Positions 4,306-31,352 of a stretch of DNA of 64,000 bases are shown here, piece after piece (the stretch's first letter is position 1; each line of letters opens with the position of its first letter). Location of the stretch: NCBI RefSeq assembly GCF_009765985.1, contig NZ_LMUM01000029.1:1-64000 (forward strand), written 5' to 3'. Origin of the DNA: Acidobacterium sp. S8 (GTDB lineage Bacteria; Acidobacteriota; Terriglobia; Terriglobales; Acidobacteriaceae). The position numbers and the translations under genes were made by a program. The notes under the pieces were generated by a model that did no database searches, was not told the DNA's origin, and saw only the letters and a program-made list of their open reading frames with translations.

Positions 4306-5154
4306 ATGAAGCAAACCCGAACCTTTCTTATCTCGATTCTGATGCTGCCGCTTCTTGCCGGCACGCTACATGCGCAAGTCCAGCACGAGCAATTGGTCTG
4401 GAGCGATGAATTTAACAGCACATCATCACCAACCCCGCCGAATTCATCGAACTGGACATTTGAGACCGGCGGCAATGGCTGGGGAAACCATGAACTCGAG
4501 ACGTATTGCGCGTACGACTCTTCCCAGCCGCCCTGTGATGCTGCGAAGCCGAATGCTTTTGTCGGTGGCGACGGCTATCTTCACATCGTGGCACGCAGCG
4601 ATGCTCAGGGGCAGTACACTTCAGCGCGGCTGAAGTCTGAAGGACTGCAGAGCTTCCAGTACGGGCGGATCGAATCGCGTATCAAAGTCCCTAAAGGACA
4701 GGGGTTCTGGCCTGCTTTCTGGATGCTTGGCGACAGCGAGACGACCGCCCACTGGCCAGCGTGCGGTGAATTGGACATCATGGAGAACATCGGCAAAGAG
4801 CCGGCAACAATTCACGGCTCGATCCATGGAATCGGCTTCATCGGAACGCCAATCAGCCTGACTTATACGCTGCCAAAGCAGCAGGCATTCGGCGATGACT
4901 TCCACATCTTCGGGCTGATCTGGTCGCCGGGGAAGATTCAGTATTATGTGGACGATCCCGCGAATATTTATGCGAGCTTCACCCCGGCAGATCTACCCAA
5001 AAACGCAGTGTGGCCATTCGATAACGGAAAGTTTTTCTTTCTGCTGAATTTTGCCATTGGCGGCGACTGGCCAGGGAATCCGGATGCGGCGAGCAAGTTT
5101 CCGCAGGACATGCTGGTGGACTATGTGCGTGTCTATGCGATGAGCAAAAAATAA
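4306..5154 (+). CDS. Secreted GH16-family endo-beta-glucanase-like glycosidase
   Basis: 282 residues from the ATG at 4306, which begins a clean Sec signal (MKQTRTFLISILMLPLLAG, cleavage near LHAQ). An in-frame ATG at 4276 would add ten residues in front of the signal and is less likely. The start LVWSDEFN and the catalytic GELDIMEN (nucleophile E155, assisting D157, acid/base E160) define GH16 laminarinase-type beta-glucanases. The core carries the aromatic GFWPAFWMLG strand, and the C-terminus ends in LVDYVRVYAM as expected. It probably cleaves beta-1,3/1,4-glucans such as laminarin outside the cell. It is convergent with the GH51 gene. Confidence 0.92.
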   Translation: MKQTRTFLISILMLPLLAGTLHAQVQHEQLVWSDEFNSTSSPTPPNSSNWTFETGGNGWGNHELETYCAYDSSQPPCDAAKPNAFVGGDGYLHIVARSDAQGQYTSARLKSEGLQSFQYGRIESRIKVPKGQGFWPAFWMLGDSETTAHWPACGELDIMENIGKEPATIHGSIHGIGFIGTPISLTYTLPKQQAFGDDFHIFGLIWSPGKIQYYVDDPANIYASFTPADLPKNAVWPFDNGKFFFLLNFAIGGDWPGNPDAASKFPQDMLVDYVRVYAMSKK

Positions 5155-5196
5155 GCCCCACACCCTGCGTGCAAAGTGCGGAGCCGGGAGCCGTCT

Positions 5197-6852
5197 CTAA
5201 GAAAGCATAATTGCCAGCTTGCTCACAGACATAGGGGGCACCCTGAAACTCACTGTCGATCCGTTCGCCGTTGCCTGGGCTGATTTCGCCCGCACCGCGT
5301 CCGGCTGCTCGAAAGTATTGTGCGCGTGGATATCGCCCGCAGCCAGCACGGTCGCCGTCACCGACGCAGTGCTGCCTCCGCGAATGGCGATTTGGGTATC
5401 GCGCTCATCGGTTAAATGCGGATTCACGACGGTCAGCGTCAGCTGCTTGCCCTTCACCGATGCCGACCCCATCAGGCCGGTCAGATCCCGCTGTACGGAA
5501 TGCGGGCCTCCGCCGCGTTGTGGCCCCCAGCGATCCGGCTTCTGAATGTCGTTGAAGCTAATCGACGGCGCAGCGATCTCAGTGCGTACGGCCTGCGCTC
5601 CCTGATGCGCCGCATACATTTCAAAAACATCGAAGTTCGGCGTCGAGATGAACTTATCTTCGTGCGCCAGGAAGAGCGAATCGATGCAGTTGATAAGCTG
5701 CGCGCAATTTCCCATGCAGACTTTTTCCGCATGGCGGTTGAAGATATCGAGAGTAAACGCGGTAACAATGGCGTCGCGCATCGTGATCTGCTGACCGAAG
5801 ATGTGCGTGGGATCGACCTCGGTTCCCGCGCCGTACCATGGGCCATATTCATCGACGACCAAGCGCGTGTGATGCTCGCGATCAAAGACGCCCATCGCGA
5901 TCCACATGTTCTGGATGATCTGCTCGGTCGATGTTCCCTGATAGAAGAGTGAGTACGCATCCTGATCGTTGAAATTCAGGGCTTCGAGCTGGTTGGTATA
6001 GTTGTGCACTGACCAGCCAAAGGGCGGATGAATCGGCCGGCGATGCAGGATGTCTTCGAAGAACTGCGTAGTCCAGTCCACGTCGTCCTGGTTTGGTCCC
6101 GATGCTACGTACTTTAGACCGACGCCATATTCCGGCACCCAGGCGGTAAAGCGACGGTATTCGTTGGAATACTCTTCTGGCGTAAACGTTCCCCCGCAAC
6201 CCCAGCTCTCGTTGCCAATGCCCCAGTAGCGAACGTTATAAGGATCAGGCGAACCAGCCGCGGCGCGAATGTCGGCATAGGTGGTGCTGTGCGCGGGCGA
6301 GTTGCAGTATTCCACCCACTGATCGAATGAGAGCGGCGGCAGGCTGCGCAGATTTGCTGCGACATACGGCTCCGCATTGCTCAGCTTGCAGAAACGGACG
6401 AATTCATCGGTACCAAAGGTGTTCGGCTCAAATTTCTGAACCGAGTCGTTTGGCAGCTTGCGCGCCTGGCCATCGTCGACCCAGAAATTTGTGCGGCGCG
6501 GACGTTTGTCACGCGGGCCGATGCCGTCCTTCCAGTCGTAGCTGTCAGCAAAGCAACCGCCCGGCCAGCGAACGACCGGAGCCTTGATCGCTTTCAGCTT
6601 CTCGACGAGTTCTTTGCGGATTCCGCCGATATTGGCAACCTTCGATTTTTCCCCTACCCAGACACCGTCGTAGATCACCCCCCCAAGATGTTCTGTAAAG
6701 TGCCCATAGATTTCCGGCGCAATCGTGGCAATCGGCTCGTTGACCAGGACCTCGATATGCGCATCGGCCGTGGCGGCAAGGGCTCGATTGCGAAGCAAAA
6801 AGTAGGCAGAGCCAGCCAGAGCGCTGGTTTTCAGAAACTCACGTCGTTGCAT
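5197..6852 (-). CDS. Tat-exported GH51 alpha-L-arabinofuranosidase
   Basis: 551 residues. The N-terminus MQRREFLKTSALAGSAYFLL is a twin-arginine signal. The (beta/alpha)8 catalytic domain shows WPGGCFADSYDW, the acid/base glutamate in GIGNESWGCG (E215) and the nucleophile in VVDEYGPWYG (E335), followed by the C-terminal beta-sandwich with LTVVNPH. GH51 enzymes release terminal arabinofuranose from arabinan, arabinoxylan or pectin side chains. Being periplasmic it would act on imported oligosaccharides. It stands alone, convergent with the GH16 gene; a GH127 enzyme for beta-linked arabinofuranose lies at 19.3 kb. Confidence 0.94.
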   Translation of the reverse strand: MQRREFLKTSALAGSAYFLLRNRALAATADAHIEVLVNEPIATIAPEIYGHFTEHLGGVIYDGVWVGEKSKVANIGGIRKELVEKLKAIKAPVVRWPGGCFADSYDWKDGIGPRDKRPRRTNFWVDDGQARKLPNDSVQKFEPNTFGTDEFVRFCKLSNAEPYVAANLRSLPPLSFDQWVEYCNSPAHSTTYADIRAAAGSPDPYNVRYWGIGNESWGCGGTFTPEEYSNEYRRFTAWVPEYGVGLKYVASGPNQDDVDWTTQFFEDILHRRPIHPPFGWSVHNYTNQLEALNFNDQDAYSLFYQGTSTEQIIQNMWIAMGVFDREHHTRLVVDEYGPWYGAGTEVDPTHIFGQQITMRDAIVTAFTLDIFNRHAEKVCMGNCAQLINCIDSLFLAHEDKFISTPNFDVFEMYAAHQGAQAVRTEIAAPSISFNDIQKPDRWGPQRGGGPHSVQRDLTGLMGSASVKGKQLTLTVVNPHLTDERDTQIAIRGGSTASVTATVLAAGDIHAHNTFEQPDAVRAKSAQATANGSTVSFRVPPMSVSKLAIMLS

Positions 6853-23930: not shown

Positions 23931-25382
23931 CTAGCTCCGTGCGAAGTCGATGTATCCGCGTTCGGGATCAGTGCGCACCAGCGTGACGTTGATTTTATCG
24001 CCTACATCTACGCCCTTCTGTCCATGCACCAGCATGCCTTCCACCGCAGGCTGAATCGTCCTCACAAAAGAACCGTGCTCATTCACGCCCGTAACGATAG
24101 CGGCAAATGTCTGCCCAATCCGGCTTTGCATCACTACAGCCGCAATGCGCTTTCGCATATCCCGCTCTACCTTGCGCGCCGCGTCTTCCTGCTTCGTGCA
24201 TTGCTTCGCAATCGCAACCAGATCATCATCGGAATAGGACTGCTTCTGCTTTGCCAGCATTGCCTTGATCAATCGCTGTGTCACCAGATCCGCATAACGG
24301 CGGTTTGGCGCGGTCGAATGCGTGTAATCCTGCACCGCCAATCCAAAGTGGCCCTCGCTGGTTTCTCCTGCACGCTCCAATACGTATTCACCCGCGCCCA
24401 GCAGCTTCACAATGGAAAGCGAAAGATCAGGAAAATGATCTGGATCGACCGCACGTCGATTGCAGAGAAACTCCTGCAATGCTTTGGAATCCGGCGTCAT
24501 CGGCAACTTCGTTCCAAGCTGCGCCGCAATCTCCACAATGCGGTCCCAGCGTTTCGGAGTTCTCACTACCCTGCGTATCGAAGAAAAGCCAGCGCTCTCC
24601 AGACTCTTCGCCACTACTTCATTCGCGGCAATCATAAAATCTTCGATCAGATCGCTGGCTGGGCTCCGCTGCTGCCTTTCAATATCGACCGGCTGCCCGT
24701 TCACCACGAGCGGGTGCGTTTCCACCGTTTCAAGATTGAGCGCACCGCGGCGATACCGCTCTTTGCGCAAGCTCTGCGCAACCTGGTTCTGTAGGAGCAA
24801 TTGATCTTGTAGCTCGTGTGAATCGGTAATCTTCGCAGGCGCATTTTTTTCTGAAGCGAGCCACGCGCCAACAGATGGATACGCCAATTGTGCCCTGTTT
24901 ACTACGCTCGCCTGATAGATATCGTTTGCGTTCACGCACCCATTTGCATCCACTGCAAACTCGCACACAACCGCAGCCCGTTCTTGCCCTTCAAGCAGCG
25001 ACGTCGCCCCTGTCGACAACTCCTCCGGCAGCATGGAAAAGTTATGCACGCCCGTATACACAGTCACCGCCTGCTCCGCGGCATATCGATCTATCGCAGA
25101 ACCGGCCGGCACATAAGCATCTACATCCGCGATTGCAATCTGAACCCTGACGGTTCCCTCCGTCAACTTCTGGGCATATTCAATCTGATCAAGATCGCGC
25201 GATGTATCGTTGTCGATCGATGACCAAAGAAGAGATCTCAGATCGCGCGATGACACAGGCGGATGCGATTGCAGCGACCCTATCTCCCGCTGTACATCTT
25301 TCGGGAAATCCGGATGAAAGCCGTGTTCCAGCATTGACTGACGTGCGGCAGCTTGCAGATTTACGGAGTGAATGTCGTTCAT
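23931..25382 (-). CDS. RNB-domain 3'-5' exoribonuclease (RNase II/R family, short form)
   Basis: 483 residues. The catalytic RNB block SSIDNDTSRDLDQIEY gives D57, D63 and D65; the fourth Asp of RNase II (D210) is replaced by Gln, a DLDQ variant I recall from other bacterial RNB proteins. HNFSMLPEELST and YTHSTAPNRRYADLVTQR are further family signatures. A C-terminal S1-like OB domain (about 415-483, GVNEHGSFVR) is present, but the N-terminal cold-shock domains of RNase II and R are missing. It probably degrades RNA in the cytosol. The gene overlaps nothing but its start lies 70 bases from the divergent FNT gene. Confidence 0.88.
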   Translation of the reverse strand: MNDIHSVNLQAAARQSMLEHGFHPDFPKDVQREIGSLQSHPPVSSRDLRSLLWSSIDNDTSRDLDQIEYAQKLTEGTVRVQIAIADVDAYVPAGSAIDRYAAEQAVTVYTGVHNFSMLPEELSTGATSLLEGQERAAVVCEFAVDANGCVNANDIYQASVVNRAQLAYPSVGAWLASEKNAPAKITDSHELQDQLLLQNQVAQSLRKERYRRGALNLETVETHPLVVNGQPVDIERQQRSPASDLIEDFMIAANEVVAKSLESAGFSSIRRVVRTPKRWDRIVEIAAQLGTKLPMTPDSKALQEFLCNRRAVDPDHFPDLSLSIVKLLGAGEYVLERAGETSEGHFGLAVQDYTHSTAPNRRYADLVTQRLIKAMLAKQKQSYSDDDLVAIAKQCTKQEDAARKVERDMRKRIAAVVMQSRIGQTFAAIVTGVNEHGSFVRTIQPAVEGMLVHGQKGVDVGDKINVTLVRTDPERGYIDFARS

Positions 25383-25452
25383 AAGCTCCAGTTCAAGGTA
25401 CAGACATATTCAAGGTACAGACATAGGATGCCATCGCGCAAAGGCATTGATT

Positions 25453-26325
25453 ATGAATAGAATCCGGGCATCGTCTTGCCTCGCTCACGCTTCCAATGAA
25501 TGCATGCCACTGCCCAAAATCAAGTTGCCCGTTGCGTCCGACGACCCTTCCGCATCGGTACAACGCGATCTCGACCGCCCCACCGCCTCCGAGATTTATC
25601 AGCAGGTTTCGAAGAATGCGCGGCGCGAACTTTCCCGCACCAACCTGGCATTGGCCGTCTCCGGCATCGTTGGCGGACTCACCATGGGACTCACCGGCCT
25701 AAGCGTTTCTCTGGTGCGAACGCAGCTCGGGGGCGGAAGCATCGCTGAATTTATCTCTTTGTGTTTTTATCCCATGGGCTTTATGGCGGTCATTCTCGGC
25801 CGTAGTCAGCTCTTCACAGAAAACACGCTATATCCGGTCGCATTGATGCTGACCGAACGCCGCCACTTTTTGAGCACCGTGCGGCTTTGGGCCGTCGTAT
25901 TCGCCGCCAATGTCATCGGCGCATTTCTCTTCGCCATGCTCGCCGTCAGGACGGGCGCGCTGCAACCCGAATACGTCAGTACGCTTTCAGCTCTGGGAAT
26001 GCAGGCCGTAGGTTTTCCCGCAAGTCATATCTTTTGGAGCGGCGTGGTCGGCGGTTGGATCATCGCCATGGTGGCATGGTTGGTAAGCGGCAGCCATTCG
26101 ATCACCGGATCCGTCATGCTCATCTGGTCGCTCACCTTCGTCGTCGGCCTCGGGCACTTCGCGCACTGTATTGCTACCAGCGGCGAGATTCTGGCCGCTG
26201 TGCTTCATGGCCAGCTCGCGGCCTCACGTTACTTTTTGTGGCTCGGCCCAGCCGTGCTCGGCAACATCACCGGAGGCGTGCTCCTGGTAACGCTGCTCGA
26301 ATACGGCCAGGTCAACCTGGAATAA
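25453..26325 (+). CDS. Formate/nitrite transporter (FNT) family channel
   Basis: 290 residues from the ATG at 25453, which has AAAGG 9 nt upstream; a longer frame from 25372 would overlap the divergent RNB gene and is unlikely, and ATG 25504 has no ribosome site. After a 60-residue polar N-terminus come six membrane helices with GGLTMGLTGLSVSLV, GRSQLFTENTLYPV (the FNT motif with Glu/Asn) and HSITGSVMLIWSL. FNT proteins form pentameric channels for formate, nitrite or hydrosulfide. No formate or nitrite enzyme is adjacent, so the ion cannot be named. Tail to tail with the pspA-like gene, two bases apart. Confidence 0.9.
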   Translation: MNRIRASSCLAHASNECMPLPKIKLPVASDDPSASVQRDLDRPTASEIYQQVSKNARRELSRTNLALAVSGIVGGLTMGLTGLSVSLVRTQLGGGSIAEFISLCFYPMGFMAVILGRSQLFTENTLYPVALMLTERRHFLSTVRLWAVVFAANVIGAFLFAMLAVRTGALQPEYVSTLSALGMQAVGFPASHIFWSGVVGGWIIAMVAWLVSGSHSITGSVMLIWSLTFVVGLGHFAHCIATSGEILAAVLHGQLAASRYFLWLGPAVLGNITGGVLLVTLLEYGQVNLE

Positions 26326-26327
26326 CT

Positions 26328-26996
26328 CTAAGCAGATTTCCCCTGCCGCTCTTTGAGATCTCGCAGCAGGCCTTCGATCCGTTCCTCGCGCTCGAGCAGC
26401 GCGAACTTGTCTTCCAGCGAATCGCCGCCCAGCAGCTCATGATGCGCAGCATTTTCCGCTTCCGCCCCAGCCACGCGTAGCTTTAGCCGGTCGATGCTCG
26501 CGCCCTTTTGCGAAGCATCGATCTTCTGCCGCGCCTGGTTCGCTTTACCCACAATACGGGCGCGTCTATGCTGCGCAATCAGCATCTCGCAGCGGCTGCG
26601 TGTCTCCGTCAGTTTTTGCTCCAGCTTTCGCAGCGCAGACCGCAGCGAATCAGCCTCATGCGTCTGGTCTTCAATCTGCTGCGCAAAGCCGGTTGTCATC
26701 TGTTCGTGACTTAGAGCGCGCTCCAGCGCAGCGCGCGCCAGGTCATCTTTACCTTTGCCTACCGCCAACTCTGCTTTCTTATGCCACTCCTCGGCAGAGC
26801 TTTCATGTTCTTTTCTCTTCTTCTCCAGAAGATGCTGATCGGCAATCGCAATTGCCACTTGTGTCTTTACCTGTAGCAGCTGGTTCTCCATATCGAGTAC
26901 CAGTTGCTTCAGCATCTTTTCCGGATCTTCCGCTTTATCGATCAGGTCATTCACATTCGCACGCAGCAGAGCTGAAACGCGTTCCAGGAGTGCCAT
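26328..26996 (-). CDS. PspA/IM30-family membrane-stress protein
   Basis: 222 residues, nearly all coiled coil. The start MALLERVSALLRANVNDLIDKAEDPEKML is the hallmark amphipathic helix of PspA/IM30/Vipp1, and LVLDMENQL with long Glu/Lys/Ala heptads follow to about residue 215. Such proteins form ESCRT-III-like rods on the inner face of the membrane and protect the proton-motive force. A strong AAGGAGG lies 6 nt before ATG. It is the last gene of the XRE/NfeD/flotillin group, but a hairpin followed by a T-run precedes it (27014-27050), so its expression may be partly separate. Confidence 0.92.
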   Translation of the reverse strand: MALLERVSALLRANVNDLIDKAEDPEKMLKQLVLDMENQLLQVKTQVAIAIADQHLLEKKRKEHESSAEEWHKKAELAVGKGKDDLARAALERALSHEQMTTGFAQQIEDQTHEADSLRSALRKLEQKLTETRSRCEMLIAQHRRARIVGKANQARQKIDASQKGASIDRLKLRVAGAEAENAAHHELLGGDSLEDKFALLEREERIEGLLRDLKERQGKSA

Positions 26997-27013
26997 ATCT
27001 TCCTCCTTATTTT

Positions 27014-27050
27014 GAAAAAAGTTAGTGGGCGGAGCCGCAAAGCCCCGCCC
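27014..27050 (-). terminator. Hairpin with T-run between the flotillin-like and pspA-like genes
   Basis: Arms 27042-27050 (GCCCCGCCC on +) and 27027-27035 (GGGCGGAGC on +) pair over 9 bp with one mismatch, with a 6-base loop. Read on the minus strand, the stem is followed after six bases by six T (27014-27020 region). The gap makes it a weak intrinsic terminator, so partial read-through into the pspA-like gene, acting as an attenuator, is plausible. Confidence 0.5.
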
Positions 27051-27065
27051 TGAGTAAAAGTTTCG

Positions 27066-28490
27066 TTACTTGCCATCGACAGTCGCAGCGCCATTCGGAC
27101 GCGCGCGCATCCCCTTCACATTGCTCATCAGCTCGTTCATATCCATACCAGAAAGCGCTTCAAACAAGGCAGGAACCTGCGCAGCGATCTTAGTGATGTC
27201 GCCAGTCAGCTTGTTTACCCCAGCCGCAGAATCGTTTCCGGTAGACACAATCGTGATCTTGTCCACCTTCGACAGCGGCTCACACATCGCCCGCACCACA
27301 TCCGCCATGTTGCTGATCAGCCTATCGACCACCGCAGCCTGATTCCAGTCCTGGTAAGCCTCAGCCTTCACATTCATCGCCTTGGCTTCAGCTTCACCCT
27401 TCTGGAAGATAACTGCAGCCTCAGCCTCGCCTTGCACGCGAATCGCAGAAGCGCGACCTTCAGCCTCGATCGTCAACCGCGACTTCTCCGCCGACGCAAG
27501 ATTCTCGATCCGCTGACGCTCAATCTCAGCCTGTTTCAACACGGTGGAGATCAGCTCTTTCTCATGGCGCAGAATTTCTGCCTCTTGCACCTTGATCTGC
27601 TGTTCTTTCTCCACCTGCTGCACCTTTACCTGTTCGGCCACTACCTGCTGCTGCATCACGTTTGTCTGCAGCTCGTAGGCTTTGTCGGCCTGAGCTTCCT
27701 GCTTGCGGCTCTGCTCGGTAAACTGCGCTTTCTGGATATCGAGATCGCGCTGCGCCTCTGCCTGCTTCGCCAGCGAAGCCGTCTCCGCTATCACGCGGTC
27801 CTGATCTGCCGCTGCCTTTGCAATCGCAGACTCGCGCAGCGCATTCGCTCTGCGAATCGCCGTGTCGCGCTCTGCTTCCGCAGCAGCTACATCAGCATCG
27901 CGTCGAATGCGCACAATATCGGGCCGCCCCATGTTGGTGATGTATTCGTTCTTATCGCGCACCTCCTTGATGGTGAACGAAACCACCTCAAGACCCATCT
28001 TGCTCATATCATCGGCACATGTGCCGCGCATGCGGTCGGCAACCATCTCCGGCTCTTTTACGATTTGCTCCACCGTAAGCTGTCCGATGATGCCGCGCAG
28101 ATGGCCTTCCATCACCAGCCGAATCAAGCCCTCGCGCTGCGGAGGCGTCTTCGTCAAAAACTGCTCCGCTGCCGTAAGAATCGATTCCTGATCTGAGCGC
28201 ACCTTGATCTGCGCCACAGCTTCGACTGTCACAGCGACACCTTGCTTCGTGTAGAGGTCCTGCTGCGGAGCCACATCAAACGACATCAGCTCCAGGGAAA
28301 GCTGGCGGCAGCTTTCCACCATGGGAAAGATCACCGTGCCGTGTCCCTTGATCACGCGCGGCCCGCGAAAACCGTAAACAATCAGCGCCTCGTTCGGGCC
28401 GGCCTTGCGAAACATCTTCGCCAGCAGTCCGGCAAGAACAATAACGGCCAATAAACTCAATCCAACAATGATGATGATCGTGTTCGTCAT
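27066..28490 (-). CDS. Flotillin-like SPFH/band-7 membrane protein (YqiK type)
   Basis: 474 residues from the ATG at 28490, where MTNTIIIIVGLSLLAVIVLAG is an N-terminal membrane anchor; a longer frame from 28544 would add 18 hydrophilic residues in front. The SPFH domain (about 35-220) begins with GPNEALIVYGFRGP and includes DVAPQQDLYTKQGVAVTV. It is followed by a long Ala/Glu/Lys coiled coil (about 220-380) and a flotillin C-terminal region with AAVVDRLISNMADVVRAM. Flotillins scaffold functional membrane microdomains. The NfeD-like gene is immediately upstream and the pspA-like gene downstream, a combination known from Bacillus (FloT/YuaF) and others. Confidence 0.92.
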   Translation of the reverse strand: MTNTIIIIVGLSLLAVIVLAGLLAKMFRKAGPNEALIVYGFRGPRVIKGHGTVIFPMVESCRQLSLELMSFDVAPQQDLYTKQGVAVTVEAVAQIKVRSDQESILTAAEQFLTKTPPQREGLIRLVMEGHLRGIIGQLTVEQIVKEPEMVADRMRGTCADDMSKMGLEVVSFTIKEVRDKNEYITNMGRPDIVRIRRDADVAAAEAERDTAIRRANALRESAIAKAAADQDRVIAETASLAKQAEAQRDLDIQKAQFTEQSRKQEAQADKAYELQTNVMQQQVVAEQVKVQQVEKEQQIKVQEAEILRHEKELISTVLKQAEIERQRIENLASAEKSRLTIEAEGRASAIRVQGEAEAAVIFQKGEAEAKAMNVKAEAYQDWNQAAVVDRLISNMADVVRAMCEPLSKVDKITIVSTGNDSAAGVNKLTGDITKIAAQVPALFEALSGMDMNELMSNVKGMRARPNGAATVDGK

Positions 28491-28554
28491 AGTGATCCCA
28501 GTCCTTTCACCGGGAAAACTCTTGTAAGTGAGAACTTCAAGCAACGCCGTGGAC

Positions 28555-29130
28555 TTACTTCAAATCGCCAACGACTTCATCCCAGCGTCGCACCCAGGCA
28601 ATGCCCTGCTCATAGCGCATCACCACAACTTCTACATCACGCCCGATCGGCAGGCCGTTTTCGCTGCGTGCGGCAGCAAAGCGGCGGCTGCCATTCTGCG
28701 AAAACAAAATCTCGCCCGTGCCGTGACCGCGAATCACACCGCTCACCCGCCCAATCATGCCAATCGTCGCCGTCTCTTCCGCGGTCAGCGCATGCTCATG
28801 CGGAGCCAGCACGCGTGCCATGAACCAGAACAGCGCCGATGCCCCGGCAATCCCCGCAATCGTCGACAGCAGCAACACTACCGGCACTAAAAATCCGCCA
28901 TACCGCTCCAGCAGATATCCGGCACCGCCAAACCAGCAGAGAAAGATCACCAGCGTGAATCCGTTGATCGGACTCATCGTGTTCGTATTGCCGCCGTGTG
29001 CATGTCCTGTGTGCCCCGCATGCAGATGAATGTGGCCGATATGAAAATGCGAAAAGCCACCGACAAATGCAATTGCGCTGAGACAAAGCCCAAGGGCGAA
29101 GCAAAACAGATAGAAACCTTCCCAAGTCAT
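28555..29130 (-). CDS. NfeD-like membrane protein with His-rich loop
   Basis: 191 residues: one N-terminal transmembrane segment, a short His-rich loop (HFHIGHIHLHAGHTGHAHGG, residues 28-47), two more membrane helices, and a C-terminal OB-like domain (about 120-191) with GMIGRVSGVIRGHGTGEILF and the final WDEVVGDLK. The layout fits the short NfeD-type partners of flotillins. Eleven His in 20 residues could bind Zn, Ni or Cu, which is unusual for the family as I know it. Its ATG directly abuts the stop of the XRE regulator (29131), so the two are co-transcribed. Confidence 0.78.
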   Translation of the reverse strand: MTWEGFYLFCFALGLCLSAIAFVGGFSHFHIGHIHLHAGHTGHAHGGNTNTMSPINGFTLVIFLCWFGGAGYLLERYGGFLVPVVLLLSTIAGIAGASALFWFMARVLAPHEHALTAEETATIGMIGRVSGVIRGHGTGEILFSQNGSRRFAAARSENGLPIGRDVEVVVMRYEQGIAWVRRWDEVVGDLK

Positions 29131-29661
29131 TTACGCCTCTCCTTTCCGGATTTGCTTCTTCGGCGTTGGCTCCATCGCCTTCAACGATTCCGCCGGCGCG
29201 GGCCTCAATACTTCCAGCAGCCGATCCACAAGTCCCGGCGTCTCCATCACGGCCTCCAGCATCAGCAGGCACTGTCGCGTATCCTTGTGCCGCGCCAGTG
29301 CCAGCAGAGCCCGGCGAAGCGCAGGGTCACGCCGGAAGCGTTCCGCGCCGCTCACCAGCCAAAGGTCCAGCTTGTCTTCGAGCGTGCGTGCATCACTCAA
29401 CAGCTCCGAGTGGTAGCCTTCCGGATCATCCACCAGGTATCCCGGATGCACCTTGAAAAATTTCGCCAGCAACTGCCTGGTCGTGTTCGTCAGGTGCGGA
29501 CGCGCGCCGCTCTCAATCTGCGACAGGTAAGACTGGCTCATCGGAGCTCCAAGTTCGGATCGAATCGCCTTCAGCAATTCCTGCTGCGTCATGGCCCGGT
29601 TCAGGCCCCGCAAATTGCCTTCGACTTCACGCAGATAATGGATTTTCTCGCCAAGTTTCAT
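29131..29661 (-). CDS. XRE-family helix-turn-helix regulator of the NfeD/flotillin/PspA group
   Basis: 176 residues from the ATG at 29661; a frame from 29709 adds 16 residues but crosses the operator pair. The N-terminal HTH_3 domain (1-75) shows MTQQELLKAI and MSQSYLSQIESGARPHL, the classical XRE recognition helix, followed by the tetratricopeptide-like helical part and a Lys/Pro-rich C-terminus. It is the first gene of the group with nfeD-like, flotillin-like and pspA-like genes. Two near-identical palindromes (29660-29678 and 29681-29699) cover its start and the bases just upstream, pointing to autoregulation. Confidence 0.85.
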   Translation of the reverse strand: MKLGEKIHYLREVEGNLRGLNRAMTQQELLKAIRSELGAPMSQSYLSQIESGARPHLTNTTRQLLAKFFKVHPGYLVDDPEGYHSELLSDARTLEDKLDLWLVSGAERFRRDPALRRALLALARHKDTRQCLLMLEAVMETPGLVDRLLEVLRPAPAESLKAMEPTPKKQIRKGEA

Positions 29662-29678
29662 ATTGCAATCCGCAATAT
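29660..29678. promoter_or_regulatory. Proximal operator of the XRE gene
   Basis: ATATTGC-N5-GCAATAT, perfect 7-bp arms. It overlaps the second and third bases of the start codon on the minus strand. Its centre (29669) lies 21 bp from the centre of the second copy at 29681-29699, which puts both on the same face of the helix. Confidence 0.6.
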
Positions 29679-29680
29679 TT

Positions 29681-29699
29681 ATATCGCTGATTGCGATAT
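29681..29699. promoter_or_regulatory. Distal operator of the XRE gene
   Basis: ATATCGC-N5-GCGATAT, perfect 7-bp arms, extended to 8 bp by T29680/A29700. It differs from the proximal copy by one symmetric base pair per arm (ATATYGC-N5-GCRATAT). The repeat in tandem with equal spacer is hard to explain except as a protein site. Confidence 0.62.
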
Positions 29700-29756
29700 A
29701 TGGCAACAAAAATCGGCGAGACCCTGTGCAAATCCGTTTATATGGCTGATTTTGGA

Positions 29757-30638
29757 CTACTTAAAAAGCTGGTTGACGCGCTGAATCAACCCCTGCGCGT
29801 CGAATGGAGCGCGCACTTTGGCGTCATTGTCAAAGTAAACATACACATCGCGCTTCTCGCGCTTCTTCGCGGGGAGATCGCTGGCGCGCTCCTCACTGGC
29901 AGGCTCGTCGCCCTGTGCCCATGCCGCTACGCGGGAAGCCCATGCATCCAGCGCTTCATCGTCGTAGCCACTCGAATACAGCACCTCGGAGCCGTGCAGC
30001 CGGCAATAGACAAAATCTGAGGTCACGTCCATCAGCCGCGGCCACTCCACCGTATCGGCGCACACCATTGCCACGTCATAACGCCGCAGCAGCGCAATAA
30101 ATTCCGGAGTTACAAAACTTTTATGCCGGATCTCCATCGCATGGCGCACCTTTACCTTCACCTCCGGCTCAGTGAAGGCTCGCTCTTTCATCCACGGTTC
30201 ATGGCTCTTCGCCAGCATCCCAGCTTGCATAGAGTCTCGCGGCAGAAGCGCAAAAAATGATTCCACCAGTTCATGGTCGAATTTGAAGGTCGCCGGAAAT
30301 TGCCAAAGGATCGGCCCAAGTTTTCTGCCCAGCTTCAGAAGTCCTGATGCAAAGAAGTTCGCCAGCGAAACCTCAACGTTACGCAACCTCTGGATATGCG
30401 TGATGTAGCGCGATCCTTTGATCGAGAAGACAAAATCCTTAGGCGTCTCCTCTGCCCACCTCGTGAAAGACGCAGGCCGCTGTAGAGAATAGAACGTTCC
30501 GTTCACTTCAATGGAAGGGAATGTCTTCGCCGCATACTCCAGCTCGCGTTTCTGCGGCAATTTCTCCGGATAGAACACGCCTCGCCACGGCTTGTAGTTC
30601 CATCCCGATATCCCGATGCGCACTGTACCGTGCATCAC
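29757..30638 (-). CDS. DUF72 (YecE-like) family protein
   Basis: 293 residues of the DUF72 TIM-barrel family. Typical elements are IGISGWNYKPWRGVFYPEKLP at the N-terminus, VNGTFYSLQRPASFTRWAEETP, FSIKGSRYITHIQRL, LGPILWQFPATF, AMEIRHKSF and YCRLHG with the terminal VYVYFDNDAKVRAPFDA. The biochemical function of the family is not established. The gene is upstream of the XRE regulator on the same strand with a 95-base gap holding the operators, so it probably forms a separate transcript. It is divergent from the BON lipoprotein gene. Confidence 0.9.
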   Translation of the reverse strand: MMHGTVRIGISGWNYKPWRGVFYPEKLPQKRELEYAAKTFPSIEVNGTFYSLQRPASFTRWAEETPKDFVFSIKGSRYITHIQRLRNVEVSLANFFASGLLKLGRKLGPILWQFPATFKFDHELVESFFALLPRDSMQAGMLAKSHEPWMKERAFTEPEVKVKVRHAMEIRHKSFVTPEFIALLRRYDVAMVCADTVEWPRLMDVTSDFVYCRLHGSEVLYSSGYDDEALDAWASRVAAWAQGDEPASEERASDLPAKKREKRDVYVYFDNDAKVRAPFDAQGLIQRVNQLFK

Positions 30639-30785
30639 TTCTCCCGTAGGCTACTGCAGACTGCGATAAAGGTTGCCTTCTACCTGATTTACTTATTTTC
30701 AAGTGCAGCAGTCATAAGATGCCACTTATCCGCATCCTAGAGTACGTGTTAGTAAGCACGTCTCTTCCCAGGAGTAAAGAAAACC

Positions 30786-31352
30786 ATGAAACACTACAAG
30801 CAACATAAATTGCTGGCGGCATCCGTCACCGTGCTCGGCAGCGCACTGCTCATCGCCGGATGCAACAGCAAGCCCGCCCACCCGGACGAAAAGGCAGCTG
30901 TTACCAACGCACTCAATAGCAGCAATCTAAGCAACGTCAGTGTCTCGCAGGATCAGGACAAGGGCGTCATGACTCTGACAGGAAACGTTGCCTCGGCTGA
31001 CCTGAAGAGCCAGGCAGAAGCTGCGGCAAAGCAGGCAGCACCGGACTATACGATTGCTGATGAGATTGGTGTGCAGCCACCGGGTGCCGAAAGCCAGGCC
31101 AAGGCAGTCAGCTCCAACCTTGACAGCGGCATCGAAGACAACTTCAAGGCATCGCTGAAGGCGAACAAGCAGCTCGACGATCAGAGCATCGACTACTCCG
31201 CCAAAAACGGCACACTGGTTCTTAAGGGAACCGTGAAGACTCCGACGCAAAAAGCAGAGGCAGGAAAGCTGGCGAAAGAAGTACCGAATGTTCAGCAGGT
31301 CGTAAACGAAATCGAAGTAAAACCCGGCAAGCACTCCACTGCAAAATCCTAA
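30786..31352 (+). CDS. BON-domain lipoprotein
   Basis: 188 residues. The signal ends in the lipobox LLIAGC (Cys near residue 26), so the protein is lipid-anchored in the periplasm or outer membrane. Two BON repeats follow: about 37-93 (ALNSSNLSNVSVSQ, MTLTGNVASADLK) and 112-180 (DDQSIDYSAKNGTLVLKGTV, VQQVVNEIEV). BON domains bind lipid and are linked to envelope stability, as in OsmY and DolP. CCAGGAG 10 nt before ATG supports the start. A strong hairpin terminator follows at 31370-31395, so the gene is monocistronic. Confidence 0.88.
   Translation: MKHYKQHKLLAASVTVLGSALLIAGCNSKPAHPDEKAAVTNALNSSNLSNVSVSQDQDKGVMTLTGNVASADLKSQAEAAAKQAAPDYTIADEIGVQPPGAESQAKAVSSNLDSGIEDNFKASLKANKQLDDQSIDYSAKNGTLVLKGTVKTPTQKAEAGKLAKEVPNVQQVVNEIEVKPGKHSTAKS

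What the first reader, a model, noticed from the sequence alone, without database searches (positions are those of the whole stretch)
26328..29700. Self-regulated envelope-stress module: XRE, NfeD-like, flotillin-like, PspA
Four genes in one direction with abutting ends at the first junction, a leaky hairpin before the pspA-like gene, and a regulator whose start is covered by two operators. Flotillin/NfeD pairs and PspA are each known to serve membrane integrity; combining them under a single XRE regulator, instead of the usual PspF or LiaRS-type control, looks uncommon to me.
Basis: partly seen in the sequence, partly recalled or inferred. Interest (0 to 1): 0.62.

Follow-up and report, generated by a model that had tools for sequence, protein, structure and literature searches.

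The report
Self-repressed flotillin–PspA membrane-stress operon
A soil bacterium of the phylum Acidobacteriota carries four genes in a row, a DNA-binding regulator and three membrane-care proteins, and the regulator very probably switches the whole set off through two matched docking sites laid over the promoter; the gene set was already predicted in print, but the docking sites and how strictly the genes stay together add detail.

Summary
On the minus strand lie XRE (29131-29661), an abutting NfeD/YuaF-like protein (28555-29130), a flotillin (27066-28490) and PspA (26328-26996). Two perfect palindromes, ATATYGC-N5-GCRATAT, 21 bp apart, overlie a promoter-like -35/-10 and the start codon; they are the only exact 19-bp copies in the 5.4 Mb genome. 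In 299 genomes of the class the regulator occurs in 91; 90 of these also have this flotillin, and 207 genomes have neither. Of the 91 loci, 87 have all four genes in order on one strand; the other four are cut by contig ends. The operator pair precedes the regulator in 88 of 89 testable loci, against 6 of 1780 shuffles. In the exception it sits 2 kb away, in front of an inserted beta-lactamase-family gene. Best reading: an EspR-fold autorepressor dedicated to a flotillin/NfeD/PspA membrane module; the inducing signal is unknown. The HTH/NfeD/flotillin/PspA combination in Acidobacteriota was predicted in 2022 (PMC9239133), and an XRE-type psp regulator (ClgR) is known, so "uncommon" is overstated.

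The parts
29131..29661 (-). XRE-type regulator, 176 aa: helix-turn-helix plus a C-terminal helical domain; closest solved relative EspR
   Evidence: HTH_3 E 4.8e-5; profile of 23 orthologues hits four EspR sequences, E 3.1e-7 to 4.7e-7, residues 25-90; AlphaFold model pLDDT 82.5; Foldseek ranks 1-15 are EspR chains
28555..29130 (-). NfeD/YuaF-like membrane protein, 191 aa: three predicted helices, His-rich stretch between helices 1 and 2, C-terminal OB-type barrel
   Evidence: 8 His in the loop here, median 8 (6-13) in 63 orthologues
27066..28490 (-). flotillin-type SPFH protein, 474 aa
   Evidence: Band_7 and Flot domains; NCBIfam FloT 317 bits, below its 700-bit cut-off
26328..26996 (-). PspA/IM30 protein, 222 aa
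   Evidence: PspA_IM30 E 2.2e-41; TIGR02977 132 bits, below its 243-bit cut-off
29681..29699 (.). operator 1, ATATCGCAATCAGCGATAT, in the -35/-10 spacer
   Evidence: exact palindrome; pair conserved
29660..29678 (.). operator 2, ATATTGCGGATTGCAATAT, from the end of the -10 to the start codon
   Evidence: exact palindrome; pair conserved
29701..29706 (-). -35-like hexamer TTGCCA
   Evidence: 5/6 to TTGACA at the position where relatives have it; the generic scan with stricter rules found no promoter here
29678..29683 (-). -10-like hexamer TATAAA, 17-nt spacer
   Evidence: 5/6 to TATAAT; partly made of operator letters; missed, which demands T at position 6
27027..27050 (-). G+C-rich hairpin between flotillin and pspA
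   Evidence: hairpins with z below -2 in 18 of 24 short flotillin-pspA gaps, window included

Best explanation
A four-gene operon whose first gene encodes a dedicated repressor of its own promoter. Dimers of the EspR-fold XRE protein bind two palindromes exactly two helical turns apart; operator 1 fills the spacer between -35 and -10, and operator 2 runs from the -10 across the expected transcription start to the start codon, so binding would exclude RNA polymerase (inferred from layout and conservation). Repression keeps the membrane module low: a YuaF/NfeD-like membrane partner, a flotillin scaffold and PspA, which coats and repairs damaged membrane (roles inferred from families). XRE has no membrane segment, so membrane stress must reach it indirectly, most likely by capture of its conserved C-terminal helical domain by one of its membrane-bound operon partners, or by proteolysis (speculative step). 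Full operon transcription then raises the module and, with it, the repressor, which resets the system. The hairpin before pspA probably sets the PspA:flotillin ratio or protects the end of the upstream message (weakly supported).
For: Order: 87 of 91 loci have all four genes in order on one strand, the other four cut by contig ends; independent listing of named genomes 67 of 80, the other 13 with 2.2 kb or less of contig left (the 80 are the best of 307 and overlap the first set). Linkage: 90 genomes with XRE and flotillin, 1 XRE only (G012, NfeD and flotillin broken), 1 flotillin only (G291, contig starts just before NfeD), 207 neither. Operators: 88 of 89 with pair score 16/20 or more, against 6 of 1780 dinucleotide shuffles and 7 of 1562 other stretches of the same loci; start-to-start spacing 21 in 85 and 22 in 3 of 88. 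Pair moves with the promoter: in L217 it stands 2.0 kb up, before an inserted PF00144 gene; in L215 at -419. TTGACA-like hexamer of 5/6 or better at the 17-nt position in 30 of 88, 0-12 at any other shift. In the own genome the only exact 19-bp sites are these two. Distances of the four proteins correlate over 57 loci, r 0.70-0.84, permutation maxima 0.10-0.19.
Against: No binding, expression or stress data exist here. The hexamers are both at least 4/6 at the fixed position in only 39 of 88 loci, and the generic promoter scan found none in the window. With up to 2 mismatches the own genome has 83 operator-like sites against 31 for the reversed pattern, so a wider regulon is not excluded; of 15 such other sites fetched none has a partner at 21-22 bp scoring 16 or more. 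One of 78 loci of the second set (L180) has no operator pair. In another class of the phylum the unit loosens: G553 has XRE-NfeD-flotillin without PspA in about 11 kb downstream, and G504 has a 51% XRE before a different pair of proteins. Repression rather than activation is inferred from site position only.
Confidence: 0.72

Rival explanations
1. Homeostatic autoregulation only: XRE holds the operon at a constant level and no stress signal acts on it; flotillin, NfeD and PspA are steady housekeeping scaffolds.
For: XRE has no recognisable sensor domain; negative autoregulation alone explains the operators; many class members live without the module (207 of 299 lack regulator and flotillin).
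Against: PspA and FloT-type operons studied elsewhere are stress-induced (passages of PMC8581546); a 62-residue helical domain beyond the HTH is conserved, which suggests a ligand or partner.
Confidence: 0.25
2. XRE is primarily the regulator of the NfeD-flotillin pair, and PspA is a later addition partly uncoupled by the hairpin or by genes inserted between flotillin and pspA.
For: G553 keeps XRE-NfeD-flotillin without PspA; the flotillin-PspA gap is the widest (median 161 nt, up to 910, with extra small ORFs); hairpins in 18 of 24 short gaps.
Against: PspA found in 89 of 91 XRE genomes, the two others cut by contig ends; PspA and flotillin distances correlate as well (r 0.83) as NfeD and flotillin (0.84). 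Not exclusive with the best explanation.
Confidence: 0.35
3. XRE is an EspR-like global nucleoid protein, not a dedicated regulator, and the operon is one of many targets.
For: EspR is the closest solved relative, described as nucleoid-associated in a PDB title; 83 near-matches to the operator in the genome against 31 control.
Against: Only two exact sites; of 15 other fetched sites none forms a 21-22 bp pair of 16 or more; XRE is absent exactly where the flotillin is absent, odd for a global protein.
Confidence: 0.1
4. An anti-phage or toxin-antitoxin-like mobile module.
For: Patchy presence within one family, and an XRE first gene.
Against: No PADLOC hit for any of the four proteins; members are membrane-maintenance families; the four proteins' distances agree across loci.
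Confidence: 0.03

Closest known systems
Predicted Acidobacteriota PspA network of Popp et al. 2022 (PMC9239133)
   Same: PspA with band-7/FloT protein, NfeD and HTH regulator in one neighbourhood in this phylum (passages and sections 8, 11 seen)
   Different: The parts read give no operator, promoter, regulator family or co-occurrence test; those are added here
B. subtilis yuaFGI (NfeD2-SPFH2, YuaF-YuaG/FloT)
   Same: NfeD-like plus flotillin pair; YuaF is the best PDB match; pairing of SPFH2 with YuaF/YqiJ described in PMC2636767 (passages)
   Different: Sigma-W control and no pspA in that operon (PMC2636767 passages); here XRE and PspA
B. subtilis pspA-ydjGHI
   Same: PspA with an SPFH protein in one operon; a Rho-independent terminator inside the operon (PMC8581546 passages)
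   Different: Sigma-W control; YdjI lacks a membrane anchor; other partners
M. tuberculosis clgR-pspA-pspM-pspN
   Same: Cro/XRE-type HTH regulator gene first, with pspA (PMC11237479 passages and section 22)
   Different: No flotillin or NfeD; ClgR described as unique to Actinobacteria; XRE here has no NCBIfam hit
Mycobacterial EspR
   Same: HTH region by profile and fold
   Different: Similarity limited to residues 25-90 by sequence; target genes unrelated
Band-7/flotillin plus YqiJ/YuaF plus PspA operons of Ravi et al. 2024 (PMC11237479)
   Same: PspA, band-7/flotillin and a 3TM YqiJ/YuaF protein together (passages)
   Different: Those described carry CesT/Tir and AAA+ proteins; no XRE regulator in the passages seen

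Membership tests
PspA/IM30 (Psp systems) | PspA_IM30 domain over its full length | tested here: met
   PF04012 residues 3-220, profile 2-220 of 220, E 2.2e-41
PspA/IM30 (Psp systems) | Equivalog of enterobacterial PspA (TIGR02977 cut-off) | tested here: not met
   132 bits, cut-off 243
PspA/IM30 (Psp systems) | Classical partners PspB, PspC, PspF in the operon | tested here: not met
   The operon genes are XRE, NfeD-like, flotillin and PspA; upstream DUF72 and downstream convergent formate/nitrite transporter. The rest of the genome was not searched for them.
PspA/IM30 (Psp systems) | Induction by envelope stress | not testable with these tools
   needs expression data
SPFH2-NfeD2 (FloT/YuaG-YuaF) | Band_7 plus Flotillin domain | tested here: met
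   both above Pfam cut-offs
SPFH2-NfeD2 (FloT/YuaG-YuaF) | FloT equivalog cut-off | tested here: not met
   NF058507 317 bits, cut-off 700
SPFH2-NfeD2 (FloT/YuaG-YuaF) | Adjacent NfeD2 partner: three membrane helices and OB-type C-terminal domain | tested here: met
   2k14 YuaF E 5.4e-5 by profile; model and Foldseek
XRE/Cro-CI HTH regulators | HTH_3 domain over its cut-off | tested here: met
   23.8 bits, cut-off 23
EspR | EspR-like HTH region and overall fold | tested here: met
   E 3.1e-7, residues 25-90; Foldseek ranks 1-15; membership in EspR itself is not claimed
EspR | ESX-1 regulation, long-range nucleoid binding | not testable with these tools
   would need binding data
ClgR-type psp regulator | ClgR orthology | tested here: inconclusive
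   No NCBIfam family matched XRE; a direct ClgR comparison was not run

The most novel reading that the evidence does not exclude
A Psp response of inverted logic: instead of PspA holding an activator (PspF), the membrane-bound NfeD-flotillin-PspA assembly captures a soluble EspR-like repressor through its helical C-terminal domain, with the conserved His-rich stretch of the NfeD-like protein as a pH or metal gauge; a repressor-titration circuit that reports membrane state in Acidobacteriota.
Probability: 0.2. Interest if true: 0.65.

Novelty: new variant of a known kind. Interest (0 to 1): 0.42.

Why it matters
How flotillin and PspA systems are switched outside Proteobacteria, Firmicutes and Actinobacteria is largely untested. 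Here a short, highly conserved promoter-operator stretch and a single regulator make the question directly testable in cultivated Acidobacteriota such as Edaphobacter, Granulicella, Terracidiphilus or Silvibacterium, whose genomes carry the unit, and the near-obligate linkage argues that flotillin, NfeD and PspA work as one machine in this phylum.

Tried and rejected
Rejected: anti-phage module (no PADLOC hits); known RNA element in 25000-31000 (no Rfam family at gathering score); XRE start further upstream at TTG 29709 (orthologues begin at the ATG of 29661). First operator statistic (7/10 per site, any spacing 15-30) was too loose: 770 of 4450 mononucleotide shuffles and 790 of 2414 other stretches passed, so it was replaced by the fixed-spacing pair score. 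Literature: ten searches; XRE-family + flotillin + PspA, EspR + XRE + flotillin and Acidobacteri + phage shock protein + upregulated gave no paper; this covers only the held open-access library. PMC10948618 was seen in passages only; PMC13086221, on SPFH proteins of P. aeruginosa, was seen only as a listing. Not done: PspB/PspC/PspF search in the rest of the genome, ClgR comparison, complex modelling, any scan of metagenome or viral collections.

Rows dropped before counts: two of 91 loci (L119, L120) were left out of the operator count because their XRE match does not reach the start; two of the 80 named-genome loci had under 120 nt upstream. The NfeD loop count used 63 of 66 extracted proteins; the correlation used the 57 loci with all four proteins extractable.
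Full report
What is there. All four genes lie on the minus strand in the order XRE, NfeD-like, flotillin, PspA. XRE and the NfeD-like gene abut (TAA directly followed by ATG); the next gaps are 64 and 69 nt. Upstream is a DUF72 gene in the same direction; downstream a formate/nitrite transporter gene points towards pspA and ends 2 nt from it. Pfam gives PspA_IM30, Band_7 plus Flotillin, and HTH_3. The NfeD-like protein is invisible to Pfam and NCBIfam on its own, but a profile of 27 orthologues finds B. subtilis YuaF (E 5.4e-5), and the predicted structure (three long helices, then a beta barrel) has YuaF, QmcA-YbbJ and a Pyrococcus stomatin-operon partner as its first three PDB matches.

Operators. 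Two exact palindromes of the form ATATYGC-N5-GCRATAT stand at 29681-29699 and 29660-29678, with starts 21 bp apart. The first fills the 17-nt space between TTGCCA and TATAAA; the second begins at the end of the -10-like hexamer and runs into the start codon. In 89 orthologous loci whose XRE start could be placed, 88 have such a pair (score 16 or more of 20) within 220 nt, against 6 of 1780 dinucleotide shuffles and 7 of 1562 other stretches of the same loci. The spacing is 21 in 85 and 22 in 3 of the 88, and in 25 of them the start codon follows the second 15-bp core directly. A TTGACA-like hexamer (5/6 or better) stands at the predicted place in 30 of 88 and in 0 to 12 at any other shift tested; TATAAT-like in 46 of 88, though this hexamer shares letters with the operator; both at 4/6 or better in 39 of 88. 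The generic promoter scan, which demands a final T in the -10, found nothing in 26200-29900.

The exception supports the rule. The one locus without the pair (L058, the same contig as the named L217) has a perfect pair 2.0 kb further up, followed within a few bases by a gene of the beta-lactamase family PF00144 (E 4e-61), which has been inserted between promoter and XRE. In L215 the pair lies at -419. In the named-genome set 75 of 78 loci have the pair near the start; L215 and L217 are the two just described and L180 has none.

Regulon. In the 5.4 Mb own genome the exact 19-bp form occurs only at these two places. The 17-bp core occurs exactly at two further places, both inside long reading frames, with 1 for the reversed control pattern. 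With up to two mismatches there are 83 sites against 31 for the control, an excess that I cannot explain and that may reflect base composition; of 15 other sites fetched none has a partner at 21-22 bp scoring 16 or more. A dedicated regulator is the simplest reading, not a proof.

Linkage. The class-wide search drew 299 genomes. XRE (E 1e-3 or better) is in 91 and this flotillin (E 1e-60 or better) in 91, with 90 shared. The odd ones are G012, whose NfeD-like gene and flotillin are fragments, and G291, whose contig begins just before the NfeD-like gene. All four genes are in order on one strand in 87 of 91 loci; the other four run into contig ends. PspA_IM30 is in 89 of the 91 and in 31 of the 208 without XRE. 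Seven of those 31 were looked at: four have PspA only 24-28% identical to the window's, two show no similarity at E 0.01, and one (G230) has a 55% copy lacking about 30 N-terminal residues; none has XRE, NfeD-like or flotillin beside it. Genomes are related, so nominal P values overstate the evidence. Over 57 loci the protein distances correlate, r 0.70 to 0.84.

Wider spread. In 396 genomes of the phylum XRE is in 27: 22 of the own family and 5 beyond the class. The 26 genomes whose flotillin is 70% or more identical all have XRE; the 55 with a flotillin of 35-47% have none. Of the 5, three have the full order, G553 has XRE-NfeD-flotillin without PspA within about 11 kb downstream, and G504 has a 51% XRE before a 286-aa and a 638-aa protein, the latter weakly similar to flotillin; their likeness to YqiJ/YqiK is recalled, not tested. 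This suggests that regulator plus NfeD-flotillin is the older core. The 80 named loci (the best of 307) bear Acidobacteriota-type names, among them Silvibacterium, Edaphobacter, Granulicella, Terracidiphilus, Bryocella and Acidicapsa.

The regulator. Its HTH region and fold match EspR best. Beyond the HTH lies a helical domain (residues 90-152 in the model) with several invariant residues among 23 orthologues. No sensor domain is recognised. How a membrane signal reaches it is unknown; capture by a membrane-bound operon partner is my preferred guess.

Hairpin. The window's hairpin recurs: 18 of 24 loci with a 30-110 nt flotillin-pspA gap fold with z below -2 against mononucleotide shuffles. 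The sequences differ and most lack a T run behind the stem, so a message-stability or processing element is at least as likely as a partial terminator. These 24 loci are mostly from related genera. In other loci the gap is wider and holds small extra ORFs.

Against print. PMC9239133 (passages; sections 8 and 11) already lists band-7/FloT, NfeD and HTH regulators around Acidobacteriota pspA, and PMC11237479 (passages; section 22) describes flotillin-YqiJ/YuaF-PspA operons and the XRE-type ClgR. The operon concept is therefore known in silico. I found no description of the operators or of the regulator's kinship in ten searches of the held library, which misses most subscription papers and the data sets of PMC9239133.

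Verdict. A real, conserved, self-regulated flotillin/NfeD/PspA operon; a regulatory variant of a known kind, with a testable promoter.

Noticed in passing
L217:2976-4669 (contig CAIVPR010000114.1): A beta-lactamase-family gene (PF00144 with DUF3471) sits between the operator pair and XRE, so it would be the first gene under the same repressor.
   Followed up: partly
window 28555-29130, residues 22-55 of the NfeD-like protein: His-rich stretch (8 His here, 6-13 in 63 orthologues) between predicted helices 1 and 2; possible metal or pH sensing, side of the membrane unresolved.
   Followed up: partly
L250:2599-5920: A 51% XRE relative precedes a 286-aa and a 638-aa flotillin-like protein, both without Pfam hits, in another class of the phylum.
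   Followed up: partly
L055, L078, L079, L087 between NfeD-like and flotillin: Inserted membrane-protein ORF; the one of L078 hits DUF1648, the ones of L055 and L079 look alike, that of L087 is shorter.
   Followed up: partly
L040, L053 between flotillin and PspA: A 141-150 aa ORF with a helix-rich stretch, weak SurA_N-like hits only (L040 tested).
   Followed up: no
L286 (G230), 4986-5558: A lone pspA of this clade lacking about 30 N-terminal residues, probably a remnant of a lost operon.
   Followed up: no
L071 (G012): XRE and PspA kept while NfeD-like and flotillin are reduced to fragments.
   Followed up: no
window 26325-26328: pspA and the convergent formate/nitrite transporter gene end 2 nt apart, leaving no room for a terminator between them.
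   Followed up: no
own genome: 83 sites within 2 mismatches of the operator against 31 for the reversed pattern; unexplained excess.
   Followed up: partly
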